From Cafeteria roenbergensis (taxonomy: Eukaryota > Sar > Bigyra > Bicosoecida > Cafeteriaceae), in contig VLTN01000046.1 in assembly GCA_008330645.1 (NCBI GenBank), positions 234,548-298,547 of the forward strand: 64,000 nucleotides of DNA, written 5' to 3'. The notes under the pieces are model-generated. The model was not told the origin of the DNA, ran no database searches, and was given only the letters and a program-made list of their open reading frames with translations. The position numbers and the translations under genes are program-made. Below are positions 55,622-64,000 of the stretch, in pieces (the stretch's first letter is position 1; each line of letters opens with the position of its first letter).

Positions 55622-56609
55622 TTGGTGTGTTCGGGGATGTGGCTTGGAGGAGGGGTCTGCCGGACCAACCGGCTGTCAGGCCGCCTCGATGCTGCACCGC
55701 CGTGCCTTGTTCGGCCTGTACCAGCTGGACCACACAGCCGCGCCACCGGACCTTCGTTGCCTGTGAATGTGCGGAACGCGAGGGCTGCCTCGCGAGGCGC
55801 ACATCAGCACTGCAAGCCGGCAGAGCGGCACGCGGACAGAGAGCGAGCCGGCTGTGGCCGCTGCAATATCACCATGGGCTTCGGCTGCGGCTGCTGAACC
55901 ATTGATTCTCGGGCGCGCTGTCGAGCGTGTCGTCTTTCTCGGTTTTCGTCATCAAGTGCGTGATTCTGCGGCCTTGCCGCCGTTTGCTTGTTTGCTTGTT
56001 TGGGGGGTGGGGCTCGCGTTTGGGGGCGTGAATGAACATCGTTGGGGGGGGGGGGGCGAAAAACTCGCGTCACCATACCACACACTCGATTCACAGACTC
56101 ACCAAACTCCAATCCAGCAACTCCATCACCGATGAATCTGCTTCCGTCGGGGGAGAACACGAGTGCCGGTGCGGGCCCCGGGCGGCGTCGGTCGCCGAGC
56201 CGGCAGAGCTAGTTCTTCAGCAGAGCTGCGGCGCGGTGATTGACAACCGTTTGAGCTGTAAACGGCGCATTGCGGTCTGAGGAGGCGTTCACACACCATC
56301 GATGCGCTCGTGCGCCCGCTTGGCTGATGCCTTCACCTTGCTGAGGTCGACCTGCAGACGCTCATTGCGCCACGCGGCATTGCGTCGCGCCCTCCCCACG
56401 CACGGCTTGGTTTTGGATGCGCCGAACAGCACAGGGCTGATCAAGCACAGCGTCGTTGTTTTGTTGGCAGTCGCAAGCGCCCAGGACCACGTTCTCGTGG
56501 CTCCGGCTCGCGCCGCCCCGAGTGACACCTGGCCCGGGTCCGCATTGAGGGCAGGAAAGACATGTGGGGTGCTAGCAAGGTCCATGCTCCTGGCCCACGC
56601 CTCCGGCAC
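55622..56609. other. Gene-poor interval with a retroelement fragment
   Basis: 988 bp between the giant gene and the mitochondrial-type coiled-coil gene. It holds a 105-bp retroelement 3' end (56033-56137). Two overlapping opposed frames of about 100 codons at 56289-56613 are unrecognised; the minus-strand one ends in a basic helix (NERLQVDLSKVKASAKRAHE) and could be a small gene or a leftover exon, but evidence is too thin to call it. Confidence 0.55.
56033..56137 (-). mobile_element. Solo 3' end of the RLE-type non-LTR retrotransposon
   Basis: Matches the 3' UTR of the two copies at the right end of the window from the terminal TGAACATCGTTGGGG through CCATCACCGATGAAT, then the similarity stops abruptly. 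The element is oriented on the minus strand, so only its last 105 bp were copied, a normal result of aborted target-primed reverse transcription. Its G/C homopolymer is 13 long against 8-9 in the other copies. No TTAGGG abuts this copy. Confidence 0.85.
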
Positions 56610-58766: not shown

Positions 58767-59453
58767 AAACAGTCGCCCAGGCGCCAAGCTTCAACTTTGT
58801 CTCCAGCACGCCCAGCGGCACCCGCCCGGCCGCGGCACGGCGCGTATCGGGACCAAAGGCTCGTTGGAAGCAGTCCTGGGGGCTCACGGTCGTTGGGTCT
58901 TGCTTCTTGGTCCTGAGTGCTGGCGCCTGCGGCACAATGGCAGTCGCCGAGCTCTGTCCTTGCTGTGCTGTCTTGTTTCTGGTTGGCAAATAGGAGGCGA
59001 GGATCGCCGATGCTGACCTAGTGGCTATAGATTCGGCTCGGCGGGGACCGCCAGGGTCGCCCGAGGGACGGGAGGGTGGGTCACACGAGTTCACGCACAC
59101 ACCACACGGGGCGCGCGCGCGAGACGGTACGGGGGGTCGGCCCGGGACGCCCACGTGGGCTTGAGCACCGGGTGCGCTCGCTTCTCGGAGGGCGCAAAAC
59201 GATTGACGATCGGCCAGGTGCAGCTCTGCCGTAGTAGGCAGAGCCACATGCGCTCGCAAGGTTTAGCGGTGGCGTTTCGACGCCAACCAAGCTGAACAGC
59301 AGCCCTAGATTTCGATCATTTCCAGAACGGCCAACTGTTCTGAAGCACCGGCACAGCATGGCGCTGGTGGCTGTGGGTCAGAGGGCACACCTCCTTCAGC
59401 GTTTCTGGCACAACCAAACAACGAGGCAAAGTTTCAAGACTGGTACGTTCATT

Positions 59454-59732: not shown

Positions 59733-62048
59733 TCAAGCCACGGCGGATTCGCCGGACGGCACGCGCTCATGAGTCGAAACGGCCGCAGCACATGCACTTT
59801 CGCGAAACCAGCTTTGAACGCTCGTCCGCCAGGCAAGGAGCCGGGACCGCCGCTCCCATGTTGTGGGTGTCGTAAGCGCCTCGATGACGTCCGTGTGACC
59901 AGAGCGCTGCAGCATCGCGAGGCTTGCCGAGGTGGAGTCGCCAGACGACGGCGCGGGCGCGCCAGCTTCCCGCAGCAGCCGAACTGTCGCGGCGCTGTGG
60001 CACTGGAACGCCGCCACGTTAAGAGGTGACTTGCCTTGCAGGCCTGAGATGCACGGGTCCGCGCCGGCGGCGAGGAGGCGGCGCACGAGTCGGGTGTCTG
60101 GTCTGCGGCATGCAGCTACGAGTGGCGTCGCGCCGATGTCCGTCGTGGCCATGTTCACATCCGCCCCAGCCTCCACAAGCAGCCGCGCCACCGCGTCATG
60201 GCCATTCTGGCATGCCATGTAGAGAGGCGTCGCCCCAATGTCCGTTCTGGCCTTGTTCACATCCGCCCCAGCCTCCACAAGCAGCCGCACCACCGCGTCG
60301 TGGCCGTTCTGGCATGCCATGTACAGATGCGTCGCGCCGTCGCTCGTCATGGCCTGGTTCACATCCGCCCCAGCCTCCACAAGCAGCCGCGCCACCGCGT
60401 CGTGGCCGTTCTGGCATGCCATGAAAAGAGGCGTCGCGCCGTCGTCCGTCGTGGCCATGTTCACATCCGCCCCAGCCTCCACAAGCAGCCGCACCACCGC
60501 GCCGTGGCCGCTCTGGCATGCCATGAAAAGAGGCGTCGCGCCGTCGCTCGTTCTGTCCCTGTTCACATCCGCCCCAGCCTCCACAAGCAGCCGCGCCATC
60601 GCATCGTGGCCGTTTGCGCATGCGATGTAGAGAGGTGTCGCGCCGTCGTCCGTCGTGGCCTTGTTCACATCCGCCCCAGCCTCCACAAGCAGCCGCGCCA
60701 TCGCGTCGTGGCCGTTCGCACAAGCCATGTAGAGAGGCGTCGCGCCGTCGCTCGTCCTGGCCTGGTTCACATCCGCCCCAGCCTCCACAAGCAGCCGCGC
60801 TACTGCATCGTGGCCGCTCTGGCATGCGATGAAAAGAGGCGTCGCGGCGGTGCTAGTCCTGGCCTTGTTCACATCCGCCCCAGCCTCCACAAGCAGCCGC
60901 ACCGCTGCTTCGTGGCCGTTCGCGCATGCGATGAGCAGAGGAGTTGCGCCGTCGTCCGTCGTGGCCTTGTTCACATCCGCCCCAGCCTCCACAAGCAGCT
61001 GCACCTCCGCGTCGTGGCCGTTCGCACAAGCCATGTAGAGAGGCGTCGCGCCGTCGCTCGTCCTGGCCTGGTTCACATCCGCCCCAGCCTTCACAAGCAG
61101 CCGCGCTACCGCATCGTGGCCGCTCTGGCATGCCATGAAAAGAGGCGTCGCGCCGTCGCTCGTTCTGTCCCTGTTCACATCCGCCCCAGCCTCCACAAGC
61201 AGCCGCGCCATCGCGTCGTGGCCGTTCGCGCATGCCATGTAGAGAGGTGTCACGCCGTCGTCCGTCGTGGCCTTGTTCACATCCGCCCCAGCCTCCACAA
61301 GCAGCCGCGCCACCGCGTCGTGGCCGTTCGCGCATGCGATGTAGAGAGGCGTCACGCCGTCGTCCGTCGTGGCCTTGTTCACATCCGCCCCAGCCTCCAC
61401 AAGCAGCCGCACCGCTGCTTCGTGGCCGTTCGCGCATGCGATGAGCAGAGGAGTTGCGCCGTCGTCCGTCGTGGCTTGGTTCACATCCGCCCCAGCCTTC
61501 ACAAGCAGCCGCGCCACCGCATCGTGGCCGCTCTGGCATGCGATGAGCAGAGGCGTCGCGCCGTCGCTCGTTCTGTCCCTGTTCACATCCGCCCCAGCCT
61601 CCACAAGCAGCCGCGCCATCGCATCGTGGCCGTTCGCGCATGCGATGAACAGCGGCGTCGCGCCGATGTCCGTCCTGGCCTTGTTCACATCCGCCCCAGC
61701 CTCCACAAGCAGCCGCGCCACCGCGTCGTGGCCGTTCGCGCATGCGATGTAGAGAGGTGTCACGCCGTCGTCCGTCGTGGCCTTGTTCACATCCGCCCCA
61801 GCCTCCACAAGCAGCCGCGCCATCGCATCGTGGCCGTTCGCGCATGCAGAGAAGACAGGCGACCGGCCCACCTCGTCACAAAAGTTCTCAAGCCCTCGCC
61901 TTCGAGCAATGAGCGCTCTGACCCGCACAGCATCGCCGCTCCGCGCGGCCTCAAGCATTTCGCGGCCGAGTCCTGCGCCATCAAAGCAACGCAAGGCCGC
62001 CGAGCTTGCTTGCTGCCCCTGTCCTTGCCACGAGCAGCTCAACCTCAT
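59733..62048 (-). CDS. Ankyrin-repeat protein with near-identical 34-residue units
   Basis: 771 residues from ATG 62048; an alternative start is the Met of MLEAARSGDAVRVRALIAR, where the first ankyrin-like helix begins. About 17 internal units follow the pattern GADVN-x-A-x-T-x-DGATPLYIACANGHDAVARLLVEA, bounded by less regular first and last repeats. Units are 34 rather than the usual 33 residues, the extra residue being in the hairpin loop (TTDDG or RTSDG). Ankyrin arrays bind proteins; no catalytic domain, membrane anchor or localisation signal is attached. The C-terminus (LLAWRTSVQSWFRESACAAA) is unrecognised. DNA-level near-identity of units implies recent expansion or homogenisation. The opposite strand also reads open because of the repeat and was rejected. 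Confidence 0.88.
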   Translation of the reverse strand: MRLSCSWQGQGQQASSAALRCFDGAGLGREMLEAARSGDAVRVRALIARRRGLENFCDEVGRSPVFSACANGHDAMARLLVEAGADVNKATTDDGVTPLYIACANGHDAVARLLVEAGADVNKARTDIGATPLFIACANGHDAMARLLVEAGADVNRDRTSDGATPLLIACQSGHDAVARLLVKAGADVNQATTDDGATPLLIACANGHEAAVRLLVEAGADVNKATTDDGVTPLYIACANGHDAVARLLVEAGADVNKATTDDGVTPLYMACANGHDAMARLLVEAGADVNRDRTSDGATPLFMACQSGHDAVARLLVKAGADVNQARTSDGATPLYMACANGHDAEVQLLVEAGADVNKATTDDGATPLLIACANGHEAAVRLLVEAGADVNKARTSTAATPLFIACQSGHDAVARLLVEAGADVNQARTSDGATPLYMACANGHDAMARLLVEAGADVNKATTDDGATPLYIACANGHDAMARLLVEAGADVNRDRTSDGATPLFMACQSGHGAVVRLLVEAGADVNMATTDDGATPLFMACQNGHDAVARLLVEAGADVNQAMTSDGATHLYMACQNGHDAVVRLLVEAGADVNKARTDIGATPLYMACQNGHDAVARLLVEAGADVNMATTDIGATPLVAACRRPDTRLVRRLLAAGADPCISGLQGKSPLNVAAFQCHSAATVRLLREAGAPAPSSGDSTSASLAMLQRSGHTDVIEALTTPTTWERRSRLLAWRTSVQSWFRESACAAAVSTHERVPSGESAVA
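60119..61850 (-). repeat. 102-bp tandem array of ankyrin codons
   Basis: Seventeen units with a constant core (reverse complement of ACATCCGCCCCAGCC) spaced exactly 102 bp apart, e.g. at 60156, 60258 and 60360. Variation is confined to a few loop and surface codons that occur in mix-and-match combinations (NKA, NRD, NQA, NMA; ANG or QSG/QNG). Confidence 0.95.
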
Positions 62049-62408
62049 CGAATTGTGGCGTGTCCTGGACACAGAGCGCGCACGCGCGAGCCACGCCAAC
62101 AAACGCGGACGGCGATGGCATCGGCAGCCCAAAAGGCAAGAAAGCTTGCCGCCTCCCCTGCCAACGATCCCTGGGCACCGCTGCACGCCTCACTTGCCGG
62201 ACCTGCCATGCGCTCTGGCTTTCAAGGGGCAGGGTGCGGCGGGGACGCGCTCGCGCTGGACCTTCGTGTTCCGAGCTGTGAAGCAGTGGAAAGTTCCCGA
62301 CGAGGTTGGGTCCATATTTGTCCGCAGACGTAGATTCTGCCCCGGCAAGCCAGACGTGCAAATTGGCATCATCTTGACACTCCCTTGGGCCACGCGGTTA
62401 GGGTGAAG
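62049..62408. other. Promoter-side interval of the ankyrin gene, ending at a retroelement junction
   Basis: 360 bp between the ankyrin start and the retroelement 3' end. The ankyrin frame stays open to 62186 without ATG. It ends with GGTTAGGGT at 62396-62404, immediately before the element. No other gene recognised. Confidence 0.5.
62396..62404 (+). other. Telomere-like GGTTAGGGT at retroelement 3' junction
   Basis: Nine bases matching the TTAGGG telomere repeat, four bases outside the common element terminus ATGAACATCG. On the element's strand this reads as CCCTAA-type sequence directly after its 3' end. Confidence 0.6.
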
Positions 62409-63592
62409 ATGAACATCGTTGGGGGGGGGTCGAAAACTCGCGTCACCATACCACACACTCGATTCACAGACTCATCAAGAACCAATCCAGCAACTCCATC
62501 ACCGATGAGTCACAAACCGCGCCAAACCCACAATCCCAAGTCTCAAGTCCCAGATCCCTGCCATCACACTGCCTCGAGTCACCACACAGCCGCCCCTGCT
62601 CACCGCATACGCTCCACCTGCTGCCGCAGGTACTGCGTCTGCCCGATCAGCTGGGTCGCCAGTCCCTTGGCGATGACCTCGTTCAGCCTCGACAGCCAGC
62701 GGAAGGCCCAGCGCGCACGCTCCCTCGGCCGGTCGCCGAAGGCCGTGTCCGCCACCTTCTTGAGGAAGGCGAAGGCCGCCGGTCCCATGCGTCCCGTGGT
62801 CGTGACGACGAAGGGCACAATGGAGCTCAAGTTGTCCTTTGTAGCTGAGCTCTTCTTGCACTCCCCCATCTTGTCATTCTCACGGCGCTCGAGAAAGGCG
62901 TCAATGATGTGCAAGCCCTGCGTCACGTAGGACTTGCTCACCGCCGAGGTGATCTGCACGTCGACGAGACGGGTGGTCTCGAAGTCGACGTGCACCCGCA
63001 GGTCCGGTCGCTTGCGCGCGGCCTCGCTGGACCCCGGCTGGGACCCGAAGCGCGTCTGCCCGTCCTGCCAGCTGGAGGGCTCCACCACCGACTGTAGCCC
63101 CGCCGAGCGCACCGCCGCGTGCAGGACGTCACGAACGTCGTTGTGCGCCCGGATGGTGGAGCCCTTGCCGCAACGGCAGCGCGCCAGGTGGTGTGCCACG
63201 CCCGAGACCCCGCCGATGTGGACGGTGCCTCTCGCGGTGGTGTCCCGCTGCACGCACGCGCAGTTGATCGACACGCCGTCCGGCACCACGTGGTCGGCCT
63301 CGGAGGCTCCGATGCGGTAGCGGGTGACCACCGCGAACTCCTCGTCTGTGAGCCCGCGGGGTCCCATCATCGTGTTGCGGAGCCAGTAGTGCGTTCCCGG
63401 CACGCATGCCTCCCGGAACGCGACCAGGTCGCTCATGACGCGTAGCATGGCCGGGTCGTCGATGTTGGCGACACGCTTCTCCGGCGTGCCCTTGGCCAGC
63501 GCCTCAGCCCTGCAGCGCGCTGTGCAGGCCCTGCGCGCCTTGGCCAGACGGCGCAGGAAGACACACTCGTGCTTGATGCGCAGCATGTCGTC
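62409..63592 (-). mobile_element. 5'-truncated non-LTR retrotransposon, copy 1
   Basis: About 1.2 kb oriented on the minus strand: 3' UTR 62409-62599, then the C-terminal part of the element's protein (62600-63586). The left boundary is the shared terminus ATGAACATCG plus a G-run (nine G). The right boundary is where copy 2's terminus and its telomere-like junction begin. Reverse transcriptase is missing, as expected for a 5' truncation during target-primed reverse transcription. Confidence 0.85.
62600..63586 (-). pseudogene. C-terminal zinc-knuckle and restriction-enzyme-like endonuclease (RLE) part of a retrotransposon protein
   Basis: 328 codons open from a fortuitous Met 63586 to the native stop. 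A Cys/His cluster (INCACVQRD ... HHLARCRCGKGSTIRAHNDV) precedes the RLE signature RPD at about residue 194 followed by an acidic position in LVDVQITS, the arrangement of R2/NeSL-like non-LTR element C-termini. Further down, SSIVPFVVTTTGRMGPAAF matches a block often seen in algal and protist RLE elements. The domain nicks target DNA to start reverse transcription. Upstream fingers, palm and any N-terminal DNA-binding domain are absent, so the copy is dead although its remaining frame is intact. Assignment is by motif recognition. Confidence 0.8.
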
Positions 63593-63600
63593 TTAGGGTT
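63593..63600 (+). other. Telomere-like TTAGGGTT between the two element copies
   Basis: Eight bases matching the TTAGGG repeat, sitting between the 3' terminus of copy 2 and the truncated 5' edge of copy 1. It repeats the situation at the 3' end of copy 1. Confidence 0.6.
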
Positions 63601-63601
63601 G

Positions 63602-64000
63602 ATGAACATCGTTGGGGGGGGTCGAAAACTCGCGTAACCATACCACACACTCGATTCACAGACTCACCAATCACCAATCCAACAACTCCATCACCGATGA
63701 ATCACAAACCCCGCCAAACCCACAATCCCAAGTCTCAAGTCCCAGATCACTCCCATCACACTGCCACGAGTCGCCACTCAGCCGCCCCTGCTCACCGCAT
63801 GCGCTCCACCTGCTGTCGCAGGTACTGCGTCTGCCCGATCAGCTGGGTCGCCAGTCCCTTGGCGATGACCTCGTTCAGCCTCGACAGCCAGCGAAAGGCC
63901 CAGCGCGCACGCTCCCTCGGCCGGTCGCCGAAGGCCGTGTCCGCCACCTTCTTGAGGAAGGCGAAGGCCGCCGGTCCCATGCGTCCCGTGGTCGTGACGA
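63602..64000 (-). mobile_element. Non-LTR retrotransposon, copy 2 (runs off the window)
   Basis: Begins at the shared terminus ATGAACATCG with eight G, followed by a 3' UTR about 93% identical to copy 1 (12 substitutions and one indel over about 190 bp by eye), then coding sequence from 63792. Same orientation as copy 1, giving a head-to-tail tandem. Confidence 0.85.
63792..64000 (-). CDS. C-terminus of RLE-type retrotransposon protein, copy 2 (partial)
   Basis: The visible C-terminal residues are identical to copy 1, from the TTTGRMGPAAF block to the terminal QYLRQQVERMR. Three nucleotide differences were found over about 208 bases and all are synonymous. The N-terminal part lies beyond the window, so it is unknown whether this copy keeps its reverse transcriptase. 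Confidence 0.75.
   Translation of the reverse strand, partial: VTTTGRMGPAAFAFLKKVADTAFGDRPRERARWAFRWLSRLNEVIAKGLATQLIGQTQYLRQQVERMR

What the first reader, a model, noticed from the sequence alone, without database searches (positions are those of the whole stretch)
62396..63602. Retroelement 3' ends abut TTAGGG telomere-like sequence in both complete junctions
Both long copies of the RLE-type element end within a few bases of TTAGGG-type sequence (GGTTAGGGT at 62396 and TTAGGGTT at 63593), in the same orientation. Two explanations fit: the element targets telomeric or interstitial telomere repeats, or it carries a telomere-like 3' tail used for target priming. The solo end at 56033 lacks it, so the association is not absolute.
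Basis: partly seen in the sequence, partly recalled or inferred. Interest (0 to 1): 0.72.

Follow-up and report, generated by a model that had tools for sequence, protein, structure and literature searches.

The report
Retroelement that builds onto chromosome ends
A retroelement in an unidentified, very GC-rich eukaryote sits mostly at the ends of its contigs, nearly always pointing the same way, and appears to be copied straight onto exposed chromosome ends, with a scrap of telomere sequence caught at some of the joints.

Summary
The only two TTAGGG in the 64-kb window lie 8 and 6 nt from two of its three retroelement 3' ends. The window is the right end of a contig. Of the first 100 listed of 266 genomic 3' ends, 92 lie within 20 kb of a contig end, and 90 of those 92 have the 3' end inward. 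Only 14 of 121 distinct junctions carry a TTAGGG-rotation hexamer, all on the outward G strand, yet these hexamers top an unbiased 6-mer ranking. In 69 of 121 junctions the new copy sits on a truncated, same-oriented element; 1 sits on an opposite one. Of 55 copies with both ends in view, 45 are followed at once by the next element's 3' end and 1 by element interior. Two contig termini end in mixed TTAGG/TTAGGG tracts, one capping a truncated element. The 1823-aa protein has an RT and a restriction-like endonuclease motif and is under purifying selection. Best reading: an RLE non-LTR retrotransposon that attaches to exposed chromosome ends, sometimes trapping short telomerase-type additions; a new variant of a known kind. 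Whether telomerase exists was not settled.

The parts
62412..63592 (-). Element copy A: 3' end at 62412, 5'-truncated at element position 1183
   Evidence: 97% identical to element positions 1-1183 of the reference copy in L093
62396..62411 (+). Junction of copy A: GGTTAGGGTGAAGATG, telomere-like G-strand tract running into the letters GATG before the core
63605..64000 (-). Element copy B: 3' end at 63605, joined to the truncated 5' end of copy A and cut by the contig end
   Evidence: 96% identical to element positions 1-396; contig C46 ends at window 64000
63593..63604 (+). Spacer TTAGGGTTGATG between copies A and B; its TTAGGGTT is not element sequence at this place
62600..63592 (-). Open frame of copy A: C-terminal 330 aa of the element protein, with the endonuclease motifs
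63140..63262 (-). Endonuclease zinc-like motif and RHN-type motif: CX1C-X21-HX3C-X8-RAHN
   Evidence: regular-expression match, residues 111-151 of the window frame
62960..63010 (-). PD-(D/E)XK core RPD-X13-D
   Evidence: regular-expression match, residues 195-211 of the window frame
56035..56138 (-). Solo element 3' end (element positions 1-99), severely 5'-truncated, no TTAGGG at its junction
   Evidence: 89% identity to the element over 104 columns

Best explanation
This is a telomere-associated non-LTR retrotransposon with an RT and a restriction-like endonuclease (RLE). It is added to exposed chromosome ends: the 3'-OH of the outward-pointing G-rich strand primes reverse transcription from the 3' end of the element RNA (ending ...CCCCAACGATGTTCATTCA or a shortened form). 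New copies therefore have their 3' end toward the centromere and sit on whatever the end was, often an older element eroded from its 5' side. Shown: location at contig ends, polarity, head-to-tail nesting, rarity of resumed targets in the stretches held, extra TTAGG(G)-like nucleotides at eroded element ends, coding content and selection. Inferred: that contig ends are chromosome ends, priming by the chromosome 3' end, erosion, and telomerase as the source of the tracts.
For: 90 of 92 near-end copies, and 34 of 35 contig ends, are 3'-inward (first 100 of 266 sites). RT matches agree at 32 of 33 ends of contigs of 60 kb or more (25 of 92 matches on smaller contigs set aside). 41 of 126 termini of C1-C63 end inside the element with its 5' side outward, 1 inward. 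A dispersed repeat that breaks an assembly would leave both polarities. 69 of 121 junctions lie on a same-orientation truncated element. In 40 loci (some overlapping) 88 of 91 interior segments start at the element 3' end and 0 of 121 ordered pairs resume an interrupted neighbour; of 55 copies with both ends in view 45 are followed by the next element's 3' end within 60 nt. Of 22 spacers of 9 nt or more, 8 carry a TTAGGG-rotation hexamer; shuffled spacers gave mean 1.2, maximum 5 over 2000 shuffles. One terminus is element cut at position 307 followed by GGTTAGGTTAGGTTAG; another ends GGTTGGGTTAGGTTAGGGT. RVT_1 E 3.6e-21; RLE motif; pN/pS 0.09.
Against: 8 of 100 listed copies lie more than 20 kb from a contig end, and 2 of 92 near-end copies are reversed. 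One junction, of an interior copy on C6 (L050), sits on an oppositely oriented element fragment (84% over 67 bases; missed, found). One of the 55 copies is followed by element interior and 9 by other DNA. The loci used are 0.8-3.2 kb, so a target resumed beyond a longer inserted copy would be missed. The RLE motif is intact and the sampled protein region is under purifying selection, which pure end attachment would not need. True chromosome termini are not shown to be assembled: 84 of 126 termini end neither way. Some consecutive units of equal length are 94-98% alike (L017, L028, L048), which suggests duplication by recombination too.
Confidence: 0.72

Rival explanations
1. Endonuclease-targeted insertion into telomere repeats (as described for MoTeR, FoTeR, SART/TRAS): the RLE nicks TTAGG(G) tracts, the element inserts, and the distal tract stays beyond its truncated 5' end; the next copy inserts into that leftover.
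For: RLE motif intact; hexamers strongly enriched at junctions, G strand only; 'truncated element - short TTAGGG - next element' is also what this predicts.
Against: 47 of 69 nested joints have at most 8 nt between elements and none of these has a telomere hexamer; 107 of 121 junctions lack a hexamer; TTAGGGTTAGGG has 0 matches in the 36.3-Mb assembly, against 4 for the same letters read backwards. In FoTeRs the 3' ends are followed by multiple TAACCC copies, typically 3-7 (PMC12857005, section read).
Confidence: 0.2
2. The element RNA itself carries a telomere-like 3' tail, which templates the TTAGGG at the joint.
For: TTAGGG sits exactly between old end and new 3' end; GGTTGATG or GGTTGAATG precedes the core in 9 of 121 junctions.
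Against: Most junctions lack it; spacers range from 1 to 35 nt and vary in sequence; the same kind of tract ends two contigs with no element beyond it.
Confidence: 0.08
3. Array growth is mainly recombination (break-induced replication, tandem duplication) among subtelomeres, with little new retrotransposition.
For: Consecutive units of equal length that are 94-98% alike (four of 154 bp in L017; two of about 344 bp in L028; two of about 390 bp in L048) and identical 40-bp junctions at more than one place. BIR extends MoTeR arrays (PMC7367193, passages).
Against: 121 distinct junctions with many different truncation points, new units starting at the element 3' end in 88 of 91 cases, and pN/pS 0.09 point to many independent reverse-transcription events.
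Confidence: 0.15
4. Assembly artefact: a dispersed repeat that breaks contigs, with TTAGGG by chance.
For: 42 of 126 termini stop inside the element.
Against: A dispersed repeat would give both polarities at contig ends; the split is 34:1, 32:1 and 41:1. Nine contigs of 0.42-1.53 Mb carry it at both ends. TTAGGG rotations top the 6-mer ranking.
Confidence: 0.03

Closest known systems
GilM / GilT of Giardia (telomeric non-LTR elements)
   Same: Head-to-tail, one-directional arrays at chromosome ends; 5' truncations read as terminal erosion (PMC5537684, passages).
   Different: Reported between subtelomere and telomere repeats; placed in the CRE clade (PMC10088271, passages), which was not tested for this element; the original paper is not held.
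MoTeR (Magnaporthe/Pyricularia) and FoTeR (Fusarium)
   Same: RLE-type non-LTR elements at chromosome ends, the same kind of C-terminal endonuclease signature, upstream tandem repeats (PMC12857005, abstract and sections 3, 16, 18, 19 read; here 72 bp x 19).
   Different: FoTeR 3' ends are followed by several telomere repeats; here 14 of 121 junctions have even one hexamer. The CX1C-HX3C gap is 21 residues here against 7-8 quoted for SLACS/CRE and 6 for MoTeR/FoTeR.
HeT-A / TART / TAHRE of Drosophila
   Same: 3' (poly-A) end toward the centromere (PMC10088271, passages), stacked head to tail at the very end (PMC5537684, passages). That they attach to ends of any sequence is recalled.
   Different: RLE motif here, against an APE-type endonuclease there (recalled); telomere-like tracts are still present here.
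SART1 / TRAS1 of Bombyx
   Same: Telomere-linked non-LTR elements of a host with a TTAGG repeat.
   Different: They insert into TTAGG repeats (at least three needed by SART1; PMC7265360, passages) with an APE endonuclease (PMC5537684, passages).
Athena Penelope-like elements of bdelloid rotifers
   Same: Thought to attach to uncapped chromosome ends, with short telomere repeats at the 3' joint (PMC5537684, passages).
   Different: Those are endonuclease-deficient Penelope-like elements; this protein's best structure matches are R2 and LINE-1 and it has an RLE motif.

Membership tests
RLE-encoding non-LTR retrotransposon (R2/CRE-type architecture) | Reverse transcriptase of the non-LTR type | tested here: met
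   RVT_1 E 3.6e-21; best solved-structure matches are R2 and LINE-1 proteins, E about 1e-4
RLE-encoding non-LTR retrotransposon (R2/CRE-type architecture) | C-terminal CCHC + RHN + PD-(D/E)XK signature | tested here: met
   CX1C-X21-HX3C-X8-RAHN and RPD-X13-D, C-terminal to the RT; the X21 gap is longer than the published 6-8 and the motif reads RAHN, not RHN. No Pfam model matched this region and the predicted fold was too poor to use (pLDDT 41.9)
RLE-encoding non-LTR retrotransposon (R2/CRE-type architecture) | Placement in the CRE clade by RT phylogeny | not tested
   No reference CRE/GilM/MoTeR sequences were at hand
MoTeR/FoTeR | Confined to chromosome ends | tested here: met
   92 of the first 100 listed copies within 20 kb of a contig end, a zone of about 6.5% of the 28 contigs concerned; 8 of 100 are interior
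MoTeR/FoTeR | 3' end followed by multiple telomere repeats | tested here: not met
   14 of 121 junctions have a telomere hexamer within 40 bp
HeT-A/TART/TAHRE | Head-to-tail, 3' end toward the centromere, also on non-telomeric ends | tested here: met
   (69 same, 1 opposite; contig ends stand in for chromosome ends)
HeT-A/TART/TAHRE | APE-type endonuclease (TART) and gag (recalled) | tested here: not met
   RLE motif instead; RVT_1 is the only Pfam family above its cut-off
HeT-A/TART/TAHRE | Host lacks telomerase and telomere repeats | tested here: inconclusive
   TERT profiles PF12009 and PF21399: no match, but no control rang; telomere-like tracts exist
Athena-type Penelope-like elements | Penelope-like RT, no endonuclease | tested here: not met
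   Best structure matches R2 and LINE-1, and an RLE motif
GilM/GilT | Head-to-tail telomeric arrays with 5' truncation | tested here: met
GilM/GilT | Common descent with the Giardia elements | not tested
   no Giardia element sequence was at hand

The most novel reading that the evidence does not exclude
In this lineage an RLE retrotransposon is the main way chromosomes are lengthened: it extends eroded ends of any sequence, and telomerase is lost or reduced to sloppy, very short TTAGG/TTAGGG additions. That would be an independent parallel to Drosophila telomeres, built from an RLE element that kept its endonuclease.
Probability: 0.25. Interest if true: 0.85.

Novelty: new variant of a known kind. 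Interest (0 to 1): 0.6.

Why it matters
Telomeric retroelements in print mostly either insert into telomere repeats (SART/TRAS, MoTeR/FoTeR) or replace them (Drosophila). Here one genome seems to show intermediate steps side by side: eroded element ends, ends with a few telomere-like nucleotides, and ends extended directly by the element. That makes the question of how a retroelement can take over from telomerase testable, and it offers an endonuclease-bearing element that seems to work mostly on free ends.

Tried and rejected
Chance TTAGGG: rejected by the 6-mer ranking and the position control. Canonical telomere arrays in the assembly: TTAGGG x3 0, x2 0 (reversed control 4), three units with 0-3-nt gaps 0 (reversed control 1), GGTTAGGGTTAG 2 (reversed control 1). 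TTAGGTTAGG was not searched genome-wide (cap). A photosynthetic host (a haptophyte was my first guess): antenna profile PF00504 no match, with a cyanobacterial control positive. Identifying the host from 18S rRNA: the tool failed twice. Telomerase: PF12009 and PF21399 gave nothing, but no control genome held them, so this does not show absence. Relatives in viral contigs: 7 pattern matches, none confirmed. Structure of the endonuclease region: pLDDT 41.9, not used. NCBIfam gave only a group II intron RT match below its cut-off. Papers: nine searches of an open-licence library; their listings (titles and starts of abstracts) showed no description of this element, and PMC4700185 (passages) held nothing on protist or fungal cases. 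A first count of 0 opposite-orientation joints was corrected to 1 by a more sensitive search, which also showed four 20-25-base matches taken as chance.

Full report
What was checked. The window is the last 64 kb of contig C46 (298,547 bases) of a 36.3-Mb, 167-contig genome that is not named; the window has 72% GC. TTAGGG occurs in it exactly twice, at 62398-62403 and 63593-63598, both on the + strand. The element's conserved 3' core AACATCGTTGGGG begins at 62412 and 63605, and that of a third, TTAGGG-less copy at 56035. Read on the + strand each joint runs: older DNA, then (sometimes) TTAGGG-like letters, then a few letters ending in ATG, then the core. The element's coding strand is the minus strand, so the older DNA lies at the element's 3' side and the contig end at its 5' side.

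Genome-wide copies. The 15-mer AACATCGTTGGGGGG has 266 exact matches (151 + and 115 -; the pattern read backwards has none), of which the tool lists the first 100, on C1-C39. 92 of the 100 lie within 20 kb of a contig end, a zone that makes up about 6.5% of the 28 contigs concerned; 90 of the 92, and 34 of 35 contig ends, have the 3' end inward; nine contigs carry the element at both ends. A second probe, the RT domain, gave 92 matches: on contigs of at least 60 kb 32 of 33 ends agree in polarity, and 25 matches on smaller contigs were set aside. Of the 126 termini of C1-C63, 41 end inside the element with its 5' side outward and 1 with it inward; 84 do not end in the element, one of these being masked. 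A repeat that merely breaks assemblies would show both polarities, so these are most simply chromosome ends. Exceptions: 8 of 100 copies are interior, and two copies near the left end of C10 are reversed; C85's right end is reversed in the RT set.

Junctions. From the loci held at that point (L001-L100), 121 distinct 40-bp upstream sequences were collected, identical ones collapsed. The loci are the best matches, some contig ends, and the listed sites, not a random draw. 14 of 121 hold a TTAGGG-rotation hexamer on the G strand, 0 on the C strand. Against the window background, among 6-mers seen at least 5 times, the most enriched are GGGTTA, TTAGGG, GTTAGG, TTAGAT and GGTTAG. The signal is local: 14 of 120 at -40..-1, 1 of 120 at -80..-41, 4 of 120 at -120..-81. 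The association is real but not obligatory.

What the new copy sits on. In 69 of 121 junctions the upstream DNA is the same element, cut at many different positions and in the same orientation; 1 junction, of an interior copy on C6, sits on an oppositely oriented fragment. 47 of the 69 have at most 8 nt between the two elements. Of the 22 longer spacers 8 hold a telomere hexamer (shuffled spacers: mean 1.2, maximum 5 over 2000), e.g. TTAGGGTTGATG at window 63593. In 40 loci of 0.8-3.2 kb (some overlapping), 88 of 91 interior segments begin at the element 3' end and no later segment resumes an earlier, interrupted one (0 of 121 ordered pairs). Of 55 copies whose two ends both lie inside a locus, 45 are followed within 60 nt by the next element's 3' end, 9 by other DNA and 1 by element interior. 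Insertion into the middle of an array should have left resumed targets more often; a target resumed beyond a copy longer than the locus would be missed.

The telomere itself. TTAGGGTTAGGG, TTAGGG x3 and three TTAGGG with 0-3-nt gaps have no match in the assembly. But two termini finish exactly in telomere-like letters on the outward G strand: C7 left with GGTTGGGTTAGGTTAGGGT, and C57 left, where an element truncated at position 307 is followed by GGTTAGGTTAGGTTAG. I take the telomere repeat to be a mixed TTAGG/TTAGGG type and the short tracts in the joints to be the same product. This is inference: a contig can also stop by accident inside a joint.

The element. A copy on C28 (L093) carries an uninterrupted 1823-aa frame from a methionine codon with RVT_1 at residues 647-853 and, C-terminal to it, CX1C-X21-HX3C-X8-RAHN and RPD-X13-D, the signature type of restriction-like endonucleases as quoted in PMC12857005 (section read). 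No Pfam model covers that region. The 5' region has 19 copies of a 72-bp repeat. In 36 element segments (overlapping loci included) compared with that copy over the 3' part of the frame, pS is 0.044 and pN 0.0041, ratio 0.09, no stop codons, 9 segments with a frame-shifting indel. The protein has probably been under selection until recently. No structure of use was obtained.

Mechanism. Reverse transcription primed by the exposed 3' end of the outward strand accounts for polarity, head-to-tail stacking, truncated neighbours and the rarity of resumed targets. The letters before the core vary: TGAATG in 45 of 121, ATG in 94 of 121, as expected if priming starts at slightly different points of an RNA ending ...CGATGTTCATTCA. 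The role of the RLE is open: it may trim ends, or nick telomere tracts in some events. Recombination probably adds to array growth: consecutive units of equal length, 94-98% alike, occur in L017, L028 and L048.

Against known systems. It works like GilM/GilT and, in its stacking, like HeT-A; by architecture it resembles MoTeR/FoTeR. It fails the FoTeR feature that 3' ends carry several telomere repeats, and it differs from the Drosophila elements in its endonuclease and in the presence of telomere-like tracts. Clade membership was not tested. Telomerase was not found with two profiles, but no control rang, so absence is not shown.

Verdict. Observation confirmed; interpretation partly supported. 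The TTAGGG is a real telomere mark but most likely a by-product trapped at some joints. The main finding is that the window is very probably a chromosome end built from a one-directional retroelement array.

Noticed in passing
window 59736-62189 (-): Open frame of 818 aa made largely of ankyrin repeats (102-bp DNA period, about 17 copies) lies between the solo copy and copy A, about 2-4 kb from the contig end.
   Followed up: partly
L180 (C30:171700-171900): An interior CTAACCCTAACC stretch in GC-rich DNA, one of only two GGTTAGGGTTAG matches in the assembly.
   Followed up: no
L017, L028, L048: Consecutive element fragments of equal length, 94-98% alike (four, two and two units), probably tandem duplications by recombination.
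   Followed up: partly
L098 (right end of C1): The last 464 bases of the contig are 52% GC against 72% in the window and match neither the element nor a telomere repeat; origin unknown.
   Followed up: no
L171 (left end of C53), L206 (right end of C50), L142 (left end of C16): Contig ends of 25-30% GC in an assembly whose sampled window is 72% GC; possible foreign contigs or another repeat.
   Followed up: no
window 59030-59072; also L009, L064: A stretch (GATTCGGCTCGGCGGGGACCGCCAGGGTCGCCCGAGGGACGGG) that recurs, in part, beside element junctions on other contigs; perhaps a shared subtelomeric repeat.
   Followed up: no
L050 (C6:303307-303550): An interior copy whose 3' end joins an oppositely oriented element fragment; perhaps an old end-to-end event or an inversion.
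   Followed up: partly
L010, L023 (C107): Contig C107 (40 kb) carries several RT matches, all in one orientation, so it may be a piece of a long array.
   Followed up: no
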